Virus record (IMG/VR): IMGVR_UViG_3300046794_000137
Span: 1 to 34,065 of that record
Origin: a virus
DNA length: 34,065 nucleotides
Direction: 5' to 3' (one strand)
A program made the translations under genes and the position numbers. Within the stretch, counting starts at the first letter, position 1; each line of letters starts with the position of its first letter. Below the pieces are notes generated by a model, which had not been told where the DNA came from, ran no database searches, and saw only the letters and a list, made by a program, of their open reading frames with translations. Shown piece after piece: positions 184 through 10,253 of the stretch.

Positions 184-336
184 TTAGAATTCCGGTATGT
201 ATTCGGCCTGGTACGCTTCTGCTGGGGTCTGTCCGCGCGCCCAGTTGTATGCTTCCCACATTTCGGGCTGACCGGGCTTATGTCCGTGCTCGGCGGCCAG
301 GGTCAGCAGCTCGGCCCACCACTGGTCCCATGTCAC
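184..336 (-). CDS. Small acidic hypothetical protein (50 aa)
   Basis: A 50-residue ORF reading VTWDQWWAEL... and rich in Trp, Glu and Ala. The start is taken as GTG at 336-334 because AAAGGAGG lies a few bases upstream, and because this GTG overlaps the TGA stop of the methyltransferase gene (GTGA), a typical translationally coupled junction. A longer in-frame start at 369 would lie inside the methyltransferase gene and has no binding site. No domain is recognised. It may be a small partner of the methyltransferase, but only the coupling suggests this. Confidence 0.65.
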   Translation of the reverse strand: MTWDQWWAELLTLAAEHGHKPGQPEMWEAYNWARGQTPAEAYQAEYIPEF

Positions 337-2402
337 GCTGCCTCCTTTCGCTGAGCTGAAACGCGCCAAGGATCATTCGCTCGCGCCAGCGCTGCCATGG
401 GCGGCGGTGACACACCGTTGCCGCACATGTGCACCTTCTGAGTGATCGTGAACGGCACACCATCGGCGCCGAAATCGATGATGTAGTCACGCGGGAAGCC
501 TTGGGCCCGGTACAGCTCCGGCGGCTTGATCATCCGCAGGCAGATGTCGACGATCACATAGGGTGTGCCCTTGACCAGCACAGTCACCAGGCCCAGACGG
601 TCCTTGGTGGTGATGGTCGGCGAAGGACTGTCGCACCCGCTGACGTTGTCTGTGCCGTAGTAGCTGATCAGGAAGGCCGCGACCCGCAGCGCGCCCGCTT
701 CATGCTCTGGCGACAAGCGCAGCGAAACCACCGAGCTTTTGCCGCCACCGCCTGCAGTGATGGTCGGTGCCGGTTCGTTCAGGGCTTGGCCGACGCTGTT
801 GCCGAACTGGCGTTCCATGAACGCAGTGACCAAGCCGTGGTGCTGGCCGCCGGCGCTGATGGTGTGCAACGGCTCAGCCACGTCTCGGGCATCGCAATTG
901 CCGCGCAGGTGGACCAGTTGAGCCGCCACCAGCTGCTGCTGGCTGCCAGTGCTGGTGACGGTTGTCATCGGCTCGTCTGCGCCCTTGGCGACCGTGGTAT
1001 TGAAGCCGCCGTTCATCTGCGCGATGAATGCGGTTGCCAAGGCGTATTTCCCGCCAGAGGCCATGATCGTGCCCAGCGGTTTCGCCATGTCAGCTGTGCG
1101 CGGGGCACTACCTGGTTTATCGCCATTGCCCAGCTGGACCAGCGCAGCGGCGGCCAGACCTTTGTGGTTCTGCGTGAGGACCGTGCCGAGAGGTTGATCT
1201 ACCGGGGAGGGCTTGCCCGAGTATTCAGGACCACCAGTGCCGACCAGAACAGGGCTGATCAGTGTCAGTTCGCCCCGGTTGGCACAAGTGATCGTCGGCA
1301 GCGGCTCCAGGGGATCATTGATACGGTCGCTGCCCTGGTGAGTTGCCGGTGCAATGATCGGGCTGACAATCGAGAACGAACCGCCCTTGGGGTATGACGT
1401 GATGGTGCGCAGCGGCTCGTCCGTTGATTGGACGTTCCCAACGGACCAGTTGGCGATCGGCACGATGAAAGGGTTCGCGCTATCAATGACGAACTTCTTC
1501 ATGCCCTTGGCGATGCGCCGCAGGGTGGCCGGGGCCAGATCCTTCTTGCGCCCGAAGATGCTGCGGCCGAGGTCAGTGAAGTCGATGCATTCGGCGGCAG
1601 TGCGGTACTTCAGCTGACCCTTCGCGGGCTTTTTCGCGTGAGTAGGCTCAGGCCACACAATCGGCTGGCCATCGCAGCGAGCGAGCATGAACAGGCGCTC
1701 ACGGCTGGTTGGGGCACCGAAGTCGCAGGCCTTGATGATCCGCCATTCGACGACGTAGCCCATGCCTTCCAGCAGTGACACGAAACGGCGCCAGGTTGTG
1801 CCGCGGCGTTTTGGATCTGGCACCAAGAACTGCTGGCCGACCGGAACAATCTCGCCCGGAGCAGCCACCACCTTCTTGATGACTTCTTTGTTCTTCGGCC
1901 CCATGACTGTCACCAGCTTGATGACGCGGCCAGTTGCATGGTCCCGCTTCGCGATCAGCGGACCCCATTGTAGGATCTGTTTCACATTCTCCAGGCTGAT
2001 CACCCGGGGGCGCTTCTTGCCGCCCCACTTGAGGCCGATCCATGACAGGTTGCGAATTTCTCGTTTGCGCGGTTGCCCGCCGGCCGCCTGGCTGTGGTGG
2101 GTGCAGTCCGGCGACATATGGAACCAACCCACGGCACGGCCCCCACATTCCGTATCCGGGTCACCCTCGAAAACGTCCGTGGTGAAGTGCTTCGTGCCCG
2201 GGTGGTTGGCGGTGTGCATGCTGATCGCCGCCGGACTGTGGTTCTTTGCTACGTCGACCTTGCGGCCCAGGCCCATTTCCAGCCCGGTACCGGCGCCGCC
2301 ACCCCCACAGAAGAAGTCCACGACGATTTCATCGTCCTGAGGATCGAAGCCGAGGCCGTATTGCGTTTTGAAATCGAAGGGAGGTTTCTGAAATGCGGTC
2401 AT
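333..2402 (-). CDS. DNA (cytosine-5) methyltransferase with repeat-expanded target region
   Basis: A 689-residue C5-cytosine methyltransferase that would transfer a methyl group from S-adenosylmethionine to cytosine in DNA, probably protecting phage DNA from host restriction. Visible motifs: motif I DFFCGGGGAGTG (29-40, SAM binding), motif IV with the catalytic Cys in SPDCTHHS (97-104), motif VI SLENV (136-140), motif VIII-like SRERLF (233-238), and motif X CGNGVSPP (660-667). Between residues about 328 and 612, where target-recognition sequence is expected, a unit of the form (D/N)EPLxTIT followed by Gly-rich and hydrophobic residues recurs eight times. The protein is therefore much longer than a minimal C5 enzyme (about 330-400 aa). 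The start ATG has GAGG about 11 bases upstream. Family assignment is firm; the recognition sequence is unknown. Confidence 0.95.
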   Translation of the reverse strand: MTAFQKPPFDFKTQYGLGFDPQDDEIVVDFFCGGGGAGTGLEMGLGRKVDVAKNHSPAAISMHTANHPGTKHFTTDVFEGDPDTECGGRAVGWFHMSPDCTHHSQAAGGQPRKREIRNLSWIGLKWGGKKRPRVISLENVKQILQWGPLIAKRDHATGRVIKLVTVMGPKNKEVIKKVVAAPGEIVPVGQQFLVPDPKRRGTTWRRFVSLLEGMGYVVEWRIIKACDFGAPTSRERLFMLARCDGQPIVWPEPTHAKKPAKGQLKYRTAAECIDFTDLGRSIFGRKKDLAPATLRRIAKGMKKFVIDSANPFIVPIANWSVGNVQSTDEPLRTITSYPKGGSFSIVSPIIAPATHQGSDRINDPLEPLPTITCANRGELTLISPVLVGTGGPEYSGKPSPVDQPLGTVLTQNHKGLAAAALVQLGNGDKPGSAPRTADMAKPLGTIMASGGKYALATAFIAQMNGGFNTTVAKGADEPMTTVTSTGSQQQLVAAQLVHLRGNCDARDVAEPLHTISAGGQHHGLVTAFMERQFGNSVGQALNEPAPTITAGGGGKSSVVSLRLSPEHEAGALRVAAFLISYYGTDNVSGCDSPSPTITTKDRLGLVTVLVKGTPYVIVDICLRMIKPPELYRAQGFPRDYIIDFGADGVPFTITQKVHMCGNGVSPPPMAALARANDPWRVSAQRKEAA
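567..1421 (-). repeat. Eight degenerate repeats inside the methyltransferase
   Basis: Repeat cores start at residues 328 (DEPLRTIT), 366 (EPLPTIT), 402 (DQPLGTVLT), 440 (AKPLGTIM), 476 (DEPMTTVT), 509 (AEPLHTIS), 542 (NEPAPTIT) and 591 (DSPSPTIT). The spacing is about 33-38 residues, with a longer final step. Each core is followed by a Gly/polar turn and a short hydrophobic strand such as LVTAF or LVAAQL. The copies have diverged at DNA level, so this is an old protein-level expansion and not a recent tandem duplication. Confidence 0.85.
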
Positions 2403-3808: not shown

Positions 3809-4486
3809 ATGGCTTTTAATTGGAAGTGCAAGTATTGTGGAAATCACTCTACCGTAACTAATAACAATTACATGGTGGATCATAGTAGGTTTCATCTGAA
3901 TAACTATACCGGCAAAGAACTGTTATTCAGAATTTTTACGGTGGTTTGTCCGAATGATGATTGCAAGAAAATAACTGCTAGCTCAAGTTTGGGGTACGCT
4001 ATTCTCGCGGATGGTAAATGGCAACTCGGACCTGACGCAATTCAGGAGTGGAATCTACTACCTTCAAGTGAGGCACTGGTATTTCCGGATTACGTACCTG
4101 CTCCGATTTTGGCGGATTACGAGGAAGCATGTAAAATCAGAGATCTAAGCCCAAAGGCCTCCGCTACTCTTTCCAGGCGTTGCCTCCAAGGCATTATCCG
4201 CGATTTTTGGGACGTGTCGAAACCGAGGTTATTCGACGAAGTTGAAGCTATTAGGGAGATGGTTGATATAGATACGTGGTCTGCGATAGATGCAGTGAGG
4301 CAGATTGGCAATATTGGGGCTCACATGGAGCGTGATATAAACGTAATAATTGATGTTGATTCAGAGGAGGCACAACTCTTAATAGGCTTGATTGAACTGC
4401 TTATTAAAGATTGGTACATTGCTCGACACAAAAGAAAGGAACATCTCAGAACAATAATTGAAATTGCCAAAGTGAAAAAACTTTAA
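3809..4486 (+). CDS. DUF4145 domain protein with N-terminal zinc ribbon
   Basis: A 225-residue protein. The N-terminus carries WKCKYCGNHS and, further on, CPNDDC, a four-Cys arrangement typical of a zinc ribbon (residues about 7-53). The C-terminal half contains the DUF4145 signature: DYEEACKIRDLSPKASATL at about 108-126, then SRRCLQGIIRDFW, and a later GNIGAHMERD segment. DUF4145 occurs alone or fused to restriction and helicase proteins and is often found in defence or mobile contexts; its biochemical role is not settled. The start has a strong GTGGGAG site. It lies 110 bases downstream of the membrane-protein gene in the same direction and has the same AT-rich composition, so the two probably arrived together. 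Confidence 0.85.
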   Translation: MAFNWKCKYCGNHSTVTNNNYMVDHSRFHLNNYTGKELLFRIFTVVCPNDDCKKITASSSLGYAILADGKWQLGPDAIQEWNLLPSSEALVFPDYVPAPILADYEEACKIRDLSPKASATLSRRCLQGIIRDFWDVSKPRLFDEVEAIREMVDIDTWSAIDAVRQIGNIGAHMERDINVIIDVDSEEAQLLIGLIELLIKDWYIARHKRKEHLRTIIEIAKVKKL

Positions 4487-7117: not shown

Positions 7118-7879
7118 CTAGCGGGCGAACATTCCCCACCAGAACACATGACCTAAAATCGTTAGATTTTGATCCTGCATATCCTGGAACGAATAGTCCT
7201 CATCAAGGTAGTCATCGCGGTTGAAGCTTCGCAGACGGATCCCGGCGGGCAATCTATAGACTTGCTTGATTCGCAGCTGGCCATTGTGATTGAGGGCGTA
7301 TAGGTCTCCGTCGACAATATCACCAAGAGAGTTTTTCCCGGTGTTGATGCCAACTGTGGCTCCGTCGCGAAGAACGGGCAGCATGCTGCTACCTCGGACC
7401 ACAACACATCGCGCTTTATCAAATTGAACGCCGTTCTGCCTCAAGCTTCGCTTGCCAAACCTCAGCTGAGCATTGTTGCCTTCTTCAATCGCAAAGCGGC
7501 CCGATCCAGCGGCCAGCTCAACCTCCCTCAAGAATGGAACGGACACCTCGTCATCCTCTAGCGGAGTGGAGTCATCCCATTCCCGTATTGGAACAACGCC
7601 AAGCGTAGACAGTTCGTCATTGATCTCCGTCTCCCGCCTCCAGGCGGCGCCGCTGAGGGAGTCAGCGTCTATTTGCGGGCCCTCTCCGGAATGCAGCCAT
7701 TCAATGAATACGCCCAGCCGGGTTGCTACCGGAAGCAGCGATTTTCCCGGAACTCCACGAATGAACCAGTTGTTCAGCGTCTGCGTAGATACGCCGAGCA
7801 TGGCTGCCATCTCGGTAGGACTGATTTGTCTGTTTTTCAGGATTTCCCTGAGGCGATCGCCGGAATGCTGAGTAGTCAT
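7118..7879 (-). CDS. cI: CI-type repressor, self-cleaving (S24/LexA-like)
   Basis: 253 residues. The N-terminal XRE helix-turn-helix (about 8-60, with SPTEMAAMLGVSTQTLNNW) would bind the flanking operators. The C-terminal S24 peptidase-like domain contains the Ala-Gly cleavage site (A124-G125 in ELAAGSG), the nucleophile Ser165 in RGSSM and the general-base Lys205 in RIKQVY, so it should self-cleave on RecA filaments after DNA damage and induce lytic growth. ATG 7879 is chosen; a TTG two codons earlier (7885) is also possible. No clear ribosome binding site precedes it and the start sits inside a GTTTATG half-site, so the maintenance transcript may be leaderless or nearly so, as for lambda cI. 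It is divergent from cro and flanked by OL and OR. Confidence 0.95.
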   Translation of the reverse strand: MTTQHSGDRLREILKNRQISPTEMAAMLGVSTQTLNNWFIRGVPGKSLLPVATRLGVFIEWLHSGEGPQIDADSLSGAAWRRETEINDELSTLGVVPIREWDDSTPLEDDEVSVPFLREVELAAGSGRFAIEEGNNAQLRFGKRSLRQNGVQFDKARCVVVRGSSMLPVLRDGATVGINTGKNSLGDIVDGDLYALNHNGQLRIKQVYRLPAGIRLRSFNRDDYLDEDYSFQDMQDQNLTILGHVFWWGMFAR

Positions 7880-7964
7880 AAACAAGAAGTTTACTGCCCT
7901 TGCGGTGTTTATTAAATAAACGTATCGTTGACGAATGTTTATTCGCCAGCGGCGGAATGTTTAT
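7878..7964. promoter_or_regulatory. Right operator cluster OR
   Basis: GTTTA(T/C) half-sites lie at 7878-7883 (reverse, overlapping the cI start), 7889-7894, 7907-7921 (15-base palindrome GTTTATTAAATAAAC), 7937-7942 and 7959-7964 (overlapping the cro start). The cluster covers the whole cI-cro gap. ATACGTTTAT, read on one strand or the other, is also shared exactly with OL. Confidence 0.8.
7900..7928 (+). promoter_or_regulatory. Rightward early promoter PR
   Basis: TTGCGG (7900-7905) and TATCGT (7923-7928) with 17-base spacing; the 15-base operator palindrome lies wholly in the spacer, exactly as at PL. The -35 match is weak, so the boxes are tentative, but a rightward promoter is required here for cro and the replication genes. 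Confidence 0.55.
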
Positions 7965-8718: not shown

Positions 8719-9468
8719 ATGCACGCGACAACCTTCCCACACAATAGCCCGACTGACTCGTCAGTTTTCCCGGCGGCGCCGAATCTTACGCGACAGGTCA
8801 TGTCGTCACGCGAGATCGCGGAGCTGACCGGGAAGCAGCACAAGAATATCCGCCGCGACATCCTGGCGATGCTCGCTGACCTGAAAGTCGATGCGCTCAG
8901 TTTTGAGCGCACCTACAAAGATGCGCAAAACCGGAACCAGGCCGAGTATCTACTCGACCGCGAGCACACCGACTGCCTGCTGACCGGTTACAGCGCCGAG
9001 CTGCGCATGAAGGTGATCCGCCGCTGGCGTGAGCTTGAAGCGCGGGTCATCGGCCACGTCCAGATTCCCGCCGACTTTGCCCAGGCACTGCGCCTGGCCG
9101 CCGATCAAGTCGAGCACAGCCGACAGCTGCAGGAGGTCATCGACAGGCAGGCGCCCAAGGTTGCAGCGATTCAGCGTCTGGCCGCCGCCGAGGGCGCCAT
9201 CTGCATTACCGACGCTGCGAAGCACCTGGGCATTTCCCCATCCAAGCTTTTTGACTGGATGCAGGCCAACCGCTGGCTTTACCGCCGTGGCGGGTCCACA
9301 CGCTGGATCGCCATGCAGCCGCGCATTCGCTCCGGCTACCTGAAACACAAAGTGACCGCACTCAAGCTCGACACCGAAACCGGTATCGAGCGCGCTGCGT
9401 TTCAACCTCTCGTAACCCCGAAAGGCCTTGCGTGCTTGGCTGAAAAGAACATTGGAGCTGCGCAGTGA
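8719..9468 (+). CDS. Rha-type regulator with KilAC antirepressor domain
   Basis: 249 residues from ATG 8719, which has GAGG 7-10 bases upstream; the longer frame to 8677 would start in the terminator. N-terminal Rha domain (about 25-110: MSSREIAELTGKQHKNIRRDI, then a Leu-Leu-rich segment ending YSAELRMKVIRRW) and a C-terminal KilAC/antirepressor domain (about 150-240: GAICITDAAKHLGISPSKLF then WLYRRGGSTRWIA). Proteins of this architecture act as phage antirepressors or modulate lytic growth by DNA binding or by binding a repressor. Its stop overlaps the O-like gene start (GTGA). Confidence 0.9.
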   Translation: MHATTFPHNSPTDSSVFPAAPNLTRQVMSSREIAELTGKQHKNIRRDILAMLADLKVDALSFERTYKDAQNRNQAEYLLDREHTDCLLTGYSAELRMKVIRRWRELEARVIGHVQIPADFAQALRLAADQVEHSRQLQEVIDRQAPKVAAIQRLAAAEGAICITDAAKHLGISPSKLFDWMQANRWLYRRGGSTRWIAMQPRIRSGYLKHKVTALKLDTETGIERAAFQPLVTPKGLACLAEKNIGAAQ

Positions 9469-10253
9469 GCGTTCAAGCAATGACCTGGGCGATGGATATC
9501 CCGACGTCCTCCCTGGATAACCCCGCCGCGCGGCACGTCTTGCTGTGCATGGCCAACTATGCCGGACCTGAAGGCCGTGGAGCCTTTCCGTCTGCGGCGA
9601 CTATCTCGAAACAGACAGGCCTTTCGGAACGCACGGTCCGCCTGAAATTGGATGAACTGGAGAAGGCCGGGTGGATCGCCGAGGGCAATCAGGCAATCGC
9701 TGCTGCCTACATCGACCGCCGCGACCGCCGCCCCGTGGTGTATGACCTTCAGCTAAAGCGGGGTGCAAATGCTGCACCCCGTAAAGATCGGGGTGCAGAT
9801 GACCGCACGGGGTGCAGCTCACAACCGAACGGGGTGCAGGAAAACGCAGAACGGGGTGCAGCAGCTGCACCCAATACACCATTGAACCATCAAGGAACCG
9901 AAGAGCAGCAGCAGCGCGAGGTTTCGGACTTGATCGGCCGACAGGACCAGCAGGCCATCGATGATCTGGACAACCGCCAGCGGTACGCCATGTTCGCTGA
10001 GTGGTCGCCGAACAGCCGTTACCTGATCGCCCAGGCCCAGATCGCTGGGGTCAAGCCAACCGAAATCCCTGACTCGGTCGTGAAATCGTTCATGGGTTTC
10101 TTCGCCGCCAAGCCTGACACCGTGGACACGGCGGCGGGTTGGTGTCGTCGGCTGGTTGCCTGGTTTATTCGTGAGCGAGCCCAGGATGCGGTTGAAGTCG
10201 AGAACGAGACACCGGCACCGAGCAATTGGGCCGCGAAGGGGGTGACGCTGTGA
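9465..10253 (+). CDS. Lambda O-like replication initiator
   Basis: 262 residues with GTG start (GGAG 9-12 bases upstream, overlapping the previous stop). The N-terminal winged-helix/HTH_36 domain (about 1-95, with FPSAATISKQTGLSERTVRLKLDELEKAGW cut into the usual two helices) should bind the origin iterons. A low-complexity linker (about 99-150, rich in Gly, Ala, Gln, Arg) is encoded by the iterons themselves. The C-terminal part (about 160-250, FAEWSPNSRYLIAQAQIAGV) resembles the DnaT/O C-terminal domain that contacts the helicase loader. The next gene is P-like, as in lambda O-P. Confidence 0.9.
   Translation: MSVQAMTWAMDIPTSSLDNPAARHVLLCMANYAGPEGRGAFPSAATISKQTGLSERTVRLKLDELEKAGWIAEGNQAIAAAYIDRRDRRPVVYDLQLKRGANAAPRKDRGADDRTGCSSQPNGVQENAERGAAAAPNTPLNHQGTEEQQQREVSDLIGRQDQQAIDDLDNRQRYAMFAEWSPNSRYLIAQAQIAGVKPTEIPDSVVKSFMGFFAAKPDTVDTAAGWCRRLVAWFIRERAQDAVEVENETPAPSNWAAKGVTL
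9759..9872 (+). repeat. Iteron array: probable replication origin inside O-like gene
   Basis: CGGGGTGCA occurs as five direct copies at 9759-9767, 9789-9797, 9808-9816, 9830-9838 and 9852-9860, with an exact inverted copy at 9773-9781 and a partial inverted copy at 9866-9872. The last three direct copies are 22 bases apart. The copies fall in all three reading frames of the host gene, so selection is on DNA and not protein. The lambda ori likewise lies inside gene O. Confidence 0.85.

What the first reader, a model, noticed from the sequence alone, without database searches (positions are those of the whole stretch)
567..1421. Cytosine methyltransferase with an eightfold repeated target-region unit
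The sequence shows eight (D/N)EPLxTIT-type repeats at 33-38 residue spacing between motif VIII and motifs IX/X. In C5 methyltransferases the target recognition domain sits there, and multispecific phage enzymes (SP-beta and rho11s types) carry several such elements. The inference is that this enzyme may hold several recognition elements, or a repeated scaffold that widens specificity. The PLPTITTKDR-like motif is known from other phage enzymes; the number of copies here is striking.
Basis: partly seen in the sequence, partly recalled or inferred. Interest (0 to 1): 0.7.

Follow-up and report, generated by a model that had tools for sequence, protein, structure and literature searches.

The report
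Phage methyltransferase carrying eight recognition cassettes
A bacterial virus carries a DNA-marking enzyme with eight different, swappable parts that each look like the piece such enzymes use to choose their DNA target, so one enzyme may mark many sequences and shield the virus from many bacterial restriction enzymes.

Summary
The 689-residue protein at 336-2402 (minus strand) is a C5-cytosine methyltransferase with eight PxxT[IV] units between motifs VIII and IX, against a shuffle mean of 0.44. Spacing is 33-38 residues, except 49 before the last unit. Eight is the commonest count in this large phage/plasmid family, where units range from 2 to 10.

Best reading: each unit is a target-recognition cassette like those of multispecific Bacillus phage methyltransferases, and the enzyme is a phage anti-restriction orphan. 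Units 7-8 align with the two TRD cores of SPbeta mtbP (pairwise E 0.03), one of which aligns with M.HhaI so that its Thr falls on Thr250. Cassettes are swapped cleanly: P0001 and its relative L003 are 82-100% identical in DNA on both sides of a two-for-one exchange. Units fall into recurrent types with type-specific loops around an invariant Pro and Thr, and one protein almost never holds the same type twice (3 of 255 against 80 expected).

Not shown: any DNA specificity, and the 3D layout of the eight units (AlphaFold failed there). New variant of a known kind.

The parts
336..2402 (-). C5-cytosine DNA methyltransferase gene, 689 aa (stop codon 333-335)
   Evidence: single ORF; Pfam PF00145 E 1.7e-21; phrog_116 and phrog_23072 E about 1e-98
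1476..2402 (-). catalytic core, residues 1-309: motif I (FFCGGGGAGTG), IV (SPDC), VI (ENV), VIII (RERLF)
   Evidence: translation; motif tallies over 354 relatives
1368..1475 (-). unit 1 (type I), residues 310-345, T333
1257..1367 (-). unit 2 (type Q), residues 346-382, T370
1146..1256 (-). unit 3 (type O), residues 383-419, T407; absent in L003
1032..1145 (-). unit 4 (type E), residues 420-457, T445; a slot often swapped in close relatives (E, R or H)
924..1031 (-). unit 5 (type L), residues 458-493, T481
825..923 (-). unit 6 (type A), residues 494-526, T514; the commonest type in the family
726..824 (-). unit 7 (type D), residues 527-559, T547; aligns to a TRD core of SPbeta mtbP
579..725 (-). 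unit 8 (type B, always last when present), residues 560-608, T596, with a ~14-residue N-terminal extension; aligns to the last TRD core of SPbeta mtbP
336..578 (-). C-terminal part, residues 609-689: motif IX (RMIKPPELYRAQGFP) and X (CGNGV)
   Evidence: BLASTP alignment to mtbP

Best explanation
This is an orphan, phage-encoded multispecific C5-cytosine methyltransferase. One catalytic core (motifs I-VIII plus IX-X) is served by eight different target-recognition cassettes strung between motifs VIII and IX. Each cassette is a strand, a variable loop, a fixed PxxT[IV] turn (Thr equivalent to M.HhaI Thr250), a second variable loop and a strand. One cassette at a time docks in the TRD place opposite the catalytic pocket and directs methylation to its own short cytosine-containing site. 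The phage thereby protects its DNA from several host restriction enzymes at once. Cassettes are gained, lost and exchanged by recombination in the conserved strand between them. Shown: the gene, the eight units, the family-wide variation, cassette exchange, type-specific loops, avoidance of duplicates, purifying selection. Inferred: DNA recognition by each unit, one-at-a-time docking, the anti-restriction role.
For: (1) Position and motif: all eight units lie between motifs VIII and IX. BLASTP of P0001 with SPbeta mtbP aligns units 7 and 8 with the two T[LV] cores before its motif IX. phmmer aligns mtbP's first core with M.HhaI 229-257, which puts its Thr at M.HhaI position 250 (counted on the alignment). 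SPR methyltransferase, reported in a paper title as triple-specific (Gunthert and Reiners 1987, seen only as a reference), has three such cores by eye. (2) Copy number: 2-10 units in 288 non-redundant complete relatives, 125 architectures. (3) Exchange: P0001 and L003 match at 82-100% DNA identity on both sides of residues ~380-456, where two units are replaced by one at 0-70% in 33-nt windows; L006 and L007 differ from P0001 in type at unit 4 only (37-41% against 65-97% in the other units). (4) No two alike: same type twice in 3 of 255 proteins, 80.3 +/- 4.9 expected by slot-wise permutation, 0 of 2000 shuffles as low; 0 of 288 proteins hold two units over 60% identical; different slots score over 0.5 in 2 of 4759 pairs within a protein against 2637 of 187200 between proteins of a stratum. 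(5) Loops: HMM columns 3-6, 9, 10, 12 and 19, 23-28 are conserved within types and differ between types, while Pro17 and Thr20 are shared by all 18 large types. (6) Constraint: dN/dS 0.09-0.15 over the units. (7) Fold of a four-unit relative: pTM 0.82; M.HaeIII 1dct Z 26.0, rmsd 3.5, 278 aligned; M.HhaI 1fjx Z 25.4, rmsd 3.2, 285 aligned.
Against: No specificity is known for any unit. The unit HMM scores only -1.7 bits on the SPbeta TRDs, and the last 162 residues of P0001 match no PDB sequence even at E 10, so the link to known TRDs rests on position, motif and pairwise E of 0.03 (units) and 0.001 (motif VIII). Cassettes are not freely ordered: only 15 of 320 co-occurring type pairs were seen in both orders, and type B was last in all 257 cases, so placement is constrained. 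The permutation test keeps slot and catalytic cluster but not full phylogeny. AlphaFold gave no usable model of the eight-unit region, and even in the four-unit relative units 3-4 are mostly under pLDDT 65. A search for motif depletion linked to unit types was inconclusive.
Confidence: 0.74

Rival explanations
1. Only the last one or two units act as the TRD; the others form a repeated structural or DNA-clamping scaffold (solenoid) that adds affinity or widens specificity without reading separate sites.
For: Unit 8 is the one next to motif IX and type B is last in 257 of 257 cases. Type order is largely kept. Enzymes with only two units exist, so a short TRD suffices.
Against: A scaffold has no reason to avoid repeating a unit: 3 of 255 proteins against 80 expected. 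Loops are conserved within types but differ between types, and single units are swapped while neighbours stay at 65-97% identity.
Confidence: 0.16
2. All units read DNA together as one long composite recognition sequence, one unit per short stretch, as TAL effector repeats do.
For: Regular ~36-residue modular units with type-specific residues at fixed positions; mostly ordered arrays.
Against: Family members range from 2 to 10 units with whole-unit swaps, which would change a composite site wholesale. M.HhaI places one TRD core of this kind in the DNA groove beside one flipped base (recalled), leaving no evident room for eight at once. Units are far more diverged (10-46% identity) than TAL repeats (recalled).
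Confidence: 0.05
3. The enzyme transfers another group (for example carboxymethyl from Cx-SAM, as the phage enzyme CmoX does) and the many units give near-complete base replacement rather than protection at set motifs.
For: The best PDB sequence match of P0001 is CmoX, 8yf3 (E 0.0012); motif IV is SPDC, not the usual Pro-Cys, in 351 of 354 relatives.
Against: CmoX is defined by Arg at the place of M.HhaI Asn304 and by SPPC (PMC12783734 passages); P0001 keeps the Asn (CGN662GV), as do 354 of 354 relatives. No CmoA-like gene was named among the 19 ORFs searched against family libraries, but not every ORF was searched.
Confidence: 0.03

Closest known systems
Multispecific C5-methyltransferases of Bacillus SPbeta-group phages (SPbeta mtbP, SPR, phi3T, rho11, H2)
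   Same: One catalytic core, several T[ILV]-type target-recognition cores in tandem between motifs VIII and IX; phage-encoded; the last core sits directly before motif IX.
   Different: Two to three cores by eye in mtbP and SPR against eight here; catalytic cores are only distantly similar (23% over the best 40-residue segment); the unit HMM does not recognise their TRDs; their specificities are known (recalled, and PMC8936443 passages), these are not.
Pseudomonas phage F116 DNA cytosine methyltransferase (gene 10) and the phrog_116/phrog_23072 family
   Same: Same family: 59% identity over the whole length, eight HMM units.
   Different: Different mix of units (alignment); in F116 it lies between two adenine methyltransferase genes.
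M.HhaI and M.HaeIII (single-specificity C5-methyltransferases)
   Same: Same overall fold (Z 25-26 for the four-unit relative) and, through mtbP, the same TRD Thr position for M.HhaI.
   Different: One TRD each (recalled); M.HhaI has Pro-Cys in motif IV where this family has Asp-Cys.
CmoX cytosine C5-carboxymethyltransferase (Synechococcus phage S-B43)
   Same: Phage C5-methyltransferase fold; best PDB sequence match.
   Different: P0001 lacks the Arg that binds Cx-SAM and the SPPC motif.

Membership tests
DNA (cytosine-C5) methyltransferases (PF00145) | SAM-binding motif I, catalytic Cys in motif IV, ENV motif VI, motifs VIII, IX and X in order | tested here: met
   Pfam E 1.7e-21, 77.5 bits against cut-off 22; motifs read; family tallies. 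Variation: Asp instead of Pro before the Cys.
Multispecific phage C5-methyltransferases (SPbeta type) | Several target-recognition cores in tandem between motifs VIII and IX | tested here: met
   Eight units; units 7 and 8 align to the two mtbP cores.
Multispecific phage C5-methyltransferases (SPbeta type) | Methylates several distinct DNA sequences, one per core | not testable with these tools
   Needs a methylome; motif depletion test inconclusive.
Multispecific phage C5-methyltransferases (SPbeta type) | Close common descent of the catalytic core with the SPbeta enzymes | tested here: inconclusive
   BLASTP 23% over 40 residues, E 0.001; hhalign of family alignment A3 with mtbP 96% probability: homologous, but not the same subfamily by these scores.
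CmoX carboxymethyltransferases | Arg in place of M.HhaI Asn304 and SPPC motif | tested here: not met
   Asn kept in 354 of 354, SPDC in 351 of 354; criteria from PMC12783734 passages.
Restriction-modification system (methyltransferase plus cognate endonuclease) | Adjacent restriction endonuclease gene | tested here: inconclusive
   No endonuclease family among the 19 ORFs searched against one or more of Pfam, PHROGs and PADLOC; but the contig ends 332 bases beyond the gene and not all ORFs were searched.

The most novel reading that the evidence does not exclude
The phage world shares an alphabet of roughly twenty or more interchangeable recognition cassettes, each with its own fixed short DNA target. 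Single enzymes assemble 2 to 10 different letters of it, and selection removes repeats because a repeated letter protects against nothing new. Reading the cassettes would then predict a phage's methylation motifs, and hence which restriction enzymes it resists, from sequence alone.
Probability: 0.42. Interest if true: 0.82.

Novelty: new variant of a known kind. Interest (0 to 1): 0.62.

Why it matters
Multispecific methyltransferases are known from a handful of Bacillus phages with a few TRDs each (recalled). Here the same plan appears in a family with matches in 265 phage and 235 plasmid records, with up to ten units and natural cassette swaps between near-identical genes. Such pairs (for example P0001 and L003) are ready-made experiments: the difference between two methylomes should read out the targets of two or three cassettes. 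If units keep their specificity wherever they occur, this would give a lookup table from cassette to motif, useful for predicting phage resistance to restriction and for making designed methyltransferases.

Tried and rejected
AlphaFold of P0001 with a 43-sequence alignment failed in the repeat region (pLDDT about 20-40 over 303-622), so I modelled a four-unit relative (L157). The structure searches show the C5-methyltransferase fold but print no residue-level TRD alignment. The unit HMM against SPbeta mtbP gave -1.7 bits and the last 162 residues against PDB gave nothing; I relied instead on pairwise and motif evidence. A regex supplement to the HMM created a false unit type 'G' (PSKSIF before the TRD); it was dropped and all counts redone. 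The earlier unit counts are superseded.

Motif depletion: 78 non-redundant flanks of 81 close loci, all C-containing palindromic 4- and 6-mers, four unit types tested. Max-T p 0.024 (type R), 0.026 (type E), 0.62 (H) and 0.51 (P); after correction for four tests and without phylogenetic control this is no result.

CmoX-type chemistry was considered and disfavoured. A paper on Thermanaerosceptrum (PMC7988955, passages) and one on E. coli ST131 (PMC4659465, passages) proved irrelevant. Ten paper searches listed no description of this repeated-unit family that I recognised from titles and abstracts; the library lacks most subscription papers, including Trautner 1996, and REBASE was not searchable, so earlier description is possible.

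Full report
What is there. The window is a 34,065-base IMG/VR virus record. Its left end carries, on the minus strand, a 689-residue protein at 336-2402. Pfam names it a C5 cytosine methylase (E 1.7e-21), PHROGs the DNA methyltransferase families phrog_116 and phrog_23072. Motif I (FFCGGGGAGTG), motif IV Cys (SPDC), ENV, RERLF, motif IX and motif X (CGNGV) are all present in one open frame. The surroundings are those of a temperate phage: CI-like repressor (7118-7885, minus), CII-like protein (8233), Ant (8677), replication protein O-like (9465) and lambda P-like (10226), a phage integrase family match (11772), terminase, portal, tape measure. The nearest genomes with the gene are mostly Pseudomonas, so the host is probably a Pseudomonas (inference).

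The repeats are real. PxxT[ILV] occurs eight times in the protein, all between motifs VIII and IX, against 0.44 on average and at most 4 in 5000 shuffles of that region. A unit HMM restricted to distant relatives' sequences finds 7 of 8 units at 8 bits or more and none in 1000 shuffled proteins (the distant units were collected with a model that had seen P0001, the final model contains none of it). Spacing is 37, 37, 38, 36, 33, 33, 49.

The family. tblastn finds matches in 265 of 50,697 phage records and 235 of 72,556 plasmid records, from Pseudomonas, Gordonia, Mycobacterium, Vibrio, Cellulophaga, Acinetobacter, Sinorhizobium, Enterococcus and others; some of these are partial or weak. Five IMG/VR scans seeded with five members gave loci from which, with P0001 and four annotated-phage proteins, 377 proteins were read; 361 passed a completeness filter and 354 of these had a recognisable motif IX and at least one anchored unit. 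After dropping one artefact type, 288 non-redundant proteins carry 2 (3 proteins), 3 (19), 4 (41), 5 (34), 6 (44), 7 (57), 8 (70), 9 (16) or 10 (4) units, in 125 architectures. So eight is ordinary for this family. Of 80 genome loci, 75 hold an intact single frame, 46 of them with eight HMM units. Relatives in one Gordonia, one Mycobacterium and one Bacteroides phage carry units as well. The sampling follows the seeds and is not random.

What a unit is. BLASTP of P0001 with the multispecific SPbeta enzyme mtbP places units 7 and 8 on its two T[LV] cores, in line with motifs IX and X (E 0.03; the motif VIII segment E 0.001). phmmer aligns the first of these cores with M.HhaI residues 229-257 so that its Thr falls on residue 250 (the alignment block itself is weak, 2.0 bits, but lies in order between stronger blocks). 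Thr250 and its two flanking loops are the DNA-recognition part of M.HhaI (recalled). SPR methyltransferase, called triple-specific in a title seen, shows three such cores (by eye). Against this, the unit HMM itself does not score on the Bacillus TRDs, so the link is by position and motif.

Cassettes. All-against-all comparison sorts 2324 units into recurrent types; 18 types have 20 or more non-redundant members. Pro17 and Thr20 are shared by all 18; columns 3-6, 9, 10, 12 and 19, 23-28 are conserved inside a type and differ between types. That is the pattern expected of a fixed frame with two specificity loops, on either side of the Thr. P0001 reads I-Q-O-E-L-A-D-B. Close relatives differ by whole units: L003 has one unit where P0001 has two, with DNA 82-100% identical on both sides and 0-70% inside; L006 and L007 differ at unit 4 (R or H in place of E); L023 has R at unit 4 and an extra unit P. 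P0001 and L002 have the same eight types but dS 0.80 over the catalytic core and 0.21 over the units, which suggests that the unit array itself was exchanged. Some types change order between lineages: A before D in 73 and D before A in 89 non-redundant proteins; but only 15 of 320 type pairs occur in both orders, so order is mostly kept.

No two alike. The same type occurs twice in 5 of 288 proteins. Random drawing predicts 191. Permuting each slot only among proteins of the same catalytic cluster and unit number predicts 80.3 +/- 4.9 of 255, observed 3, none of 2000 permutations as low (strata with fewer than four proteins were left out). Within proteins 2 of 4759 pairs of different slots score above 0.5, between proteins of a stratum 2637 of 187,200. 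Tandem duplication would produce look-alike neighbours; their absence argues that each unit must do something different. Shared ancestry of arrays may explain part of the deficit.

Structure. AlphaFold gave no model of the eight units. For L157 (four units) the model is good overall (pLDDT 79, pTM 0.82), fair for unit 2 and weak for units 3-4. VIA-align finds C5-methyltransferases throughout: DNMT1 Z 27.2, rmsd 3.1, 284 aligned; M.HaeIII Z 26.0, rmsd 3.5, 278; M.HhaI Z 25.4, rmsd 3.2, 285. How eight units share one active site remains open.

Mechanism. The best-supported account is a multispecific orphan methyltransferase whose cassettes take turns in the TRD site, each directing methylation to its own motif, for protection against several restriction enzymes. 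Tandem TRDs giving multiple recognition sequences, and this protective use by Bacillus temperate phages, are stated in PMC8936443 and PMC12707154 (passages). No restriction gene was found beside the gene among the ORFs searched, though the contig ends just beyond it. Steps shown are sequence-level; DNA recognition is inferred.

Novelty. The plan is known; the number of cassettes, the breadth of the family, and the no-repeat rule were not found in the ten paper searches I made (listed under Tried and rejected). I file it as a new variant of a known kind.

Noticed in passing
window 2103-2114 (residues 97-100 of the protein), and 351 of 354 relatives: Motif IV reads S-P-D-C: an Asp stands directly before the catalytic Cys, where M.HhaI and the SPbeta enzyme have Pro. 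Effect on catalysis unknown.
   Followed up: partly
window 3809-4486 +: DUF4145 protein that also matches the PADLOC defence model PD-T7-4 (E 1.4e-10); a possible prophage-carried defence gene.
   Followed up: no
window 9802-9862: Tandem repeat of a ~22-base unit (2.8 copies) inside the replication O-like gene at 9465-10253; could be origin iterons as in lambda.
   Followed up: no
L082 (phage F116) 3150-6867: In F116 the cytosine methyltransferase lies between two adenine methyltransferase genes, a three-gene modification cluster.
   Followed up: no
P0001 compared with L002, residues 369-490: DNA identity is mostly 97-100% (lowest window 94%) across units 2-5 although the catalytic core has dS 0.80; looks like recent exchange of the unit array alone.
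   Followed up: partly
Klebsiella-type relatives (L083, many of L166-L245): Many lack the terminal type-B unit and end in a type-A unit followed by a degenerate stretch before motif IX.
   Followed up: no
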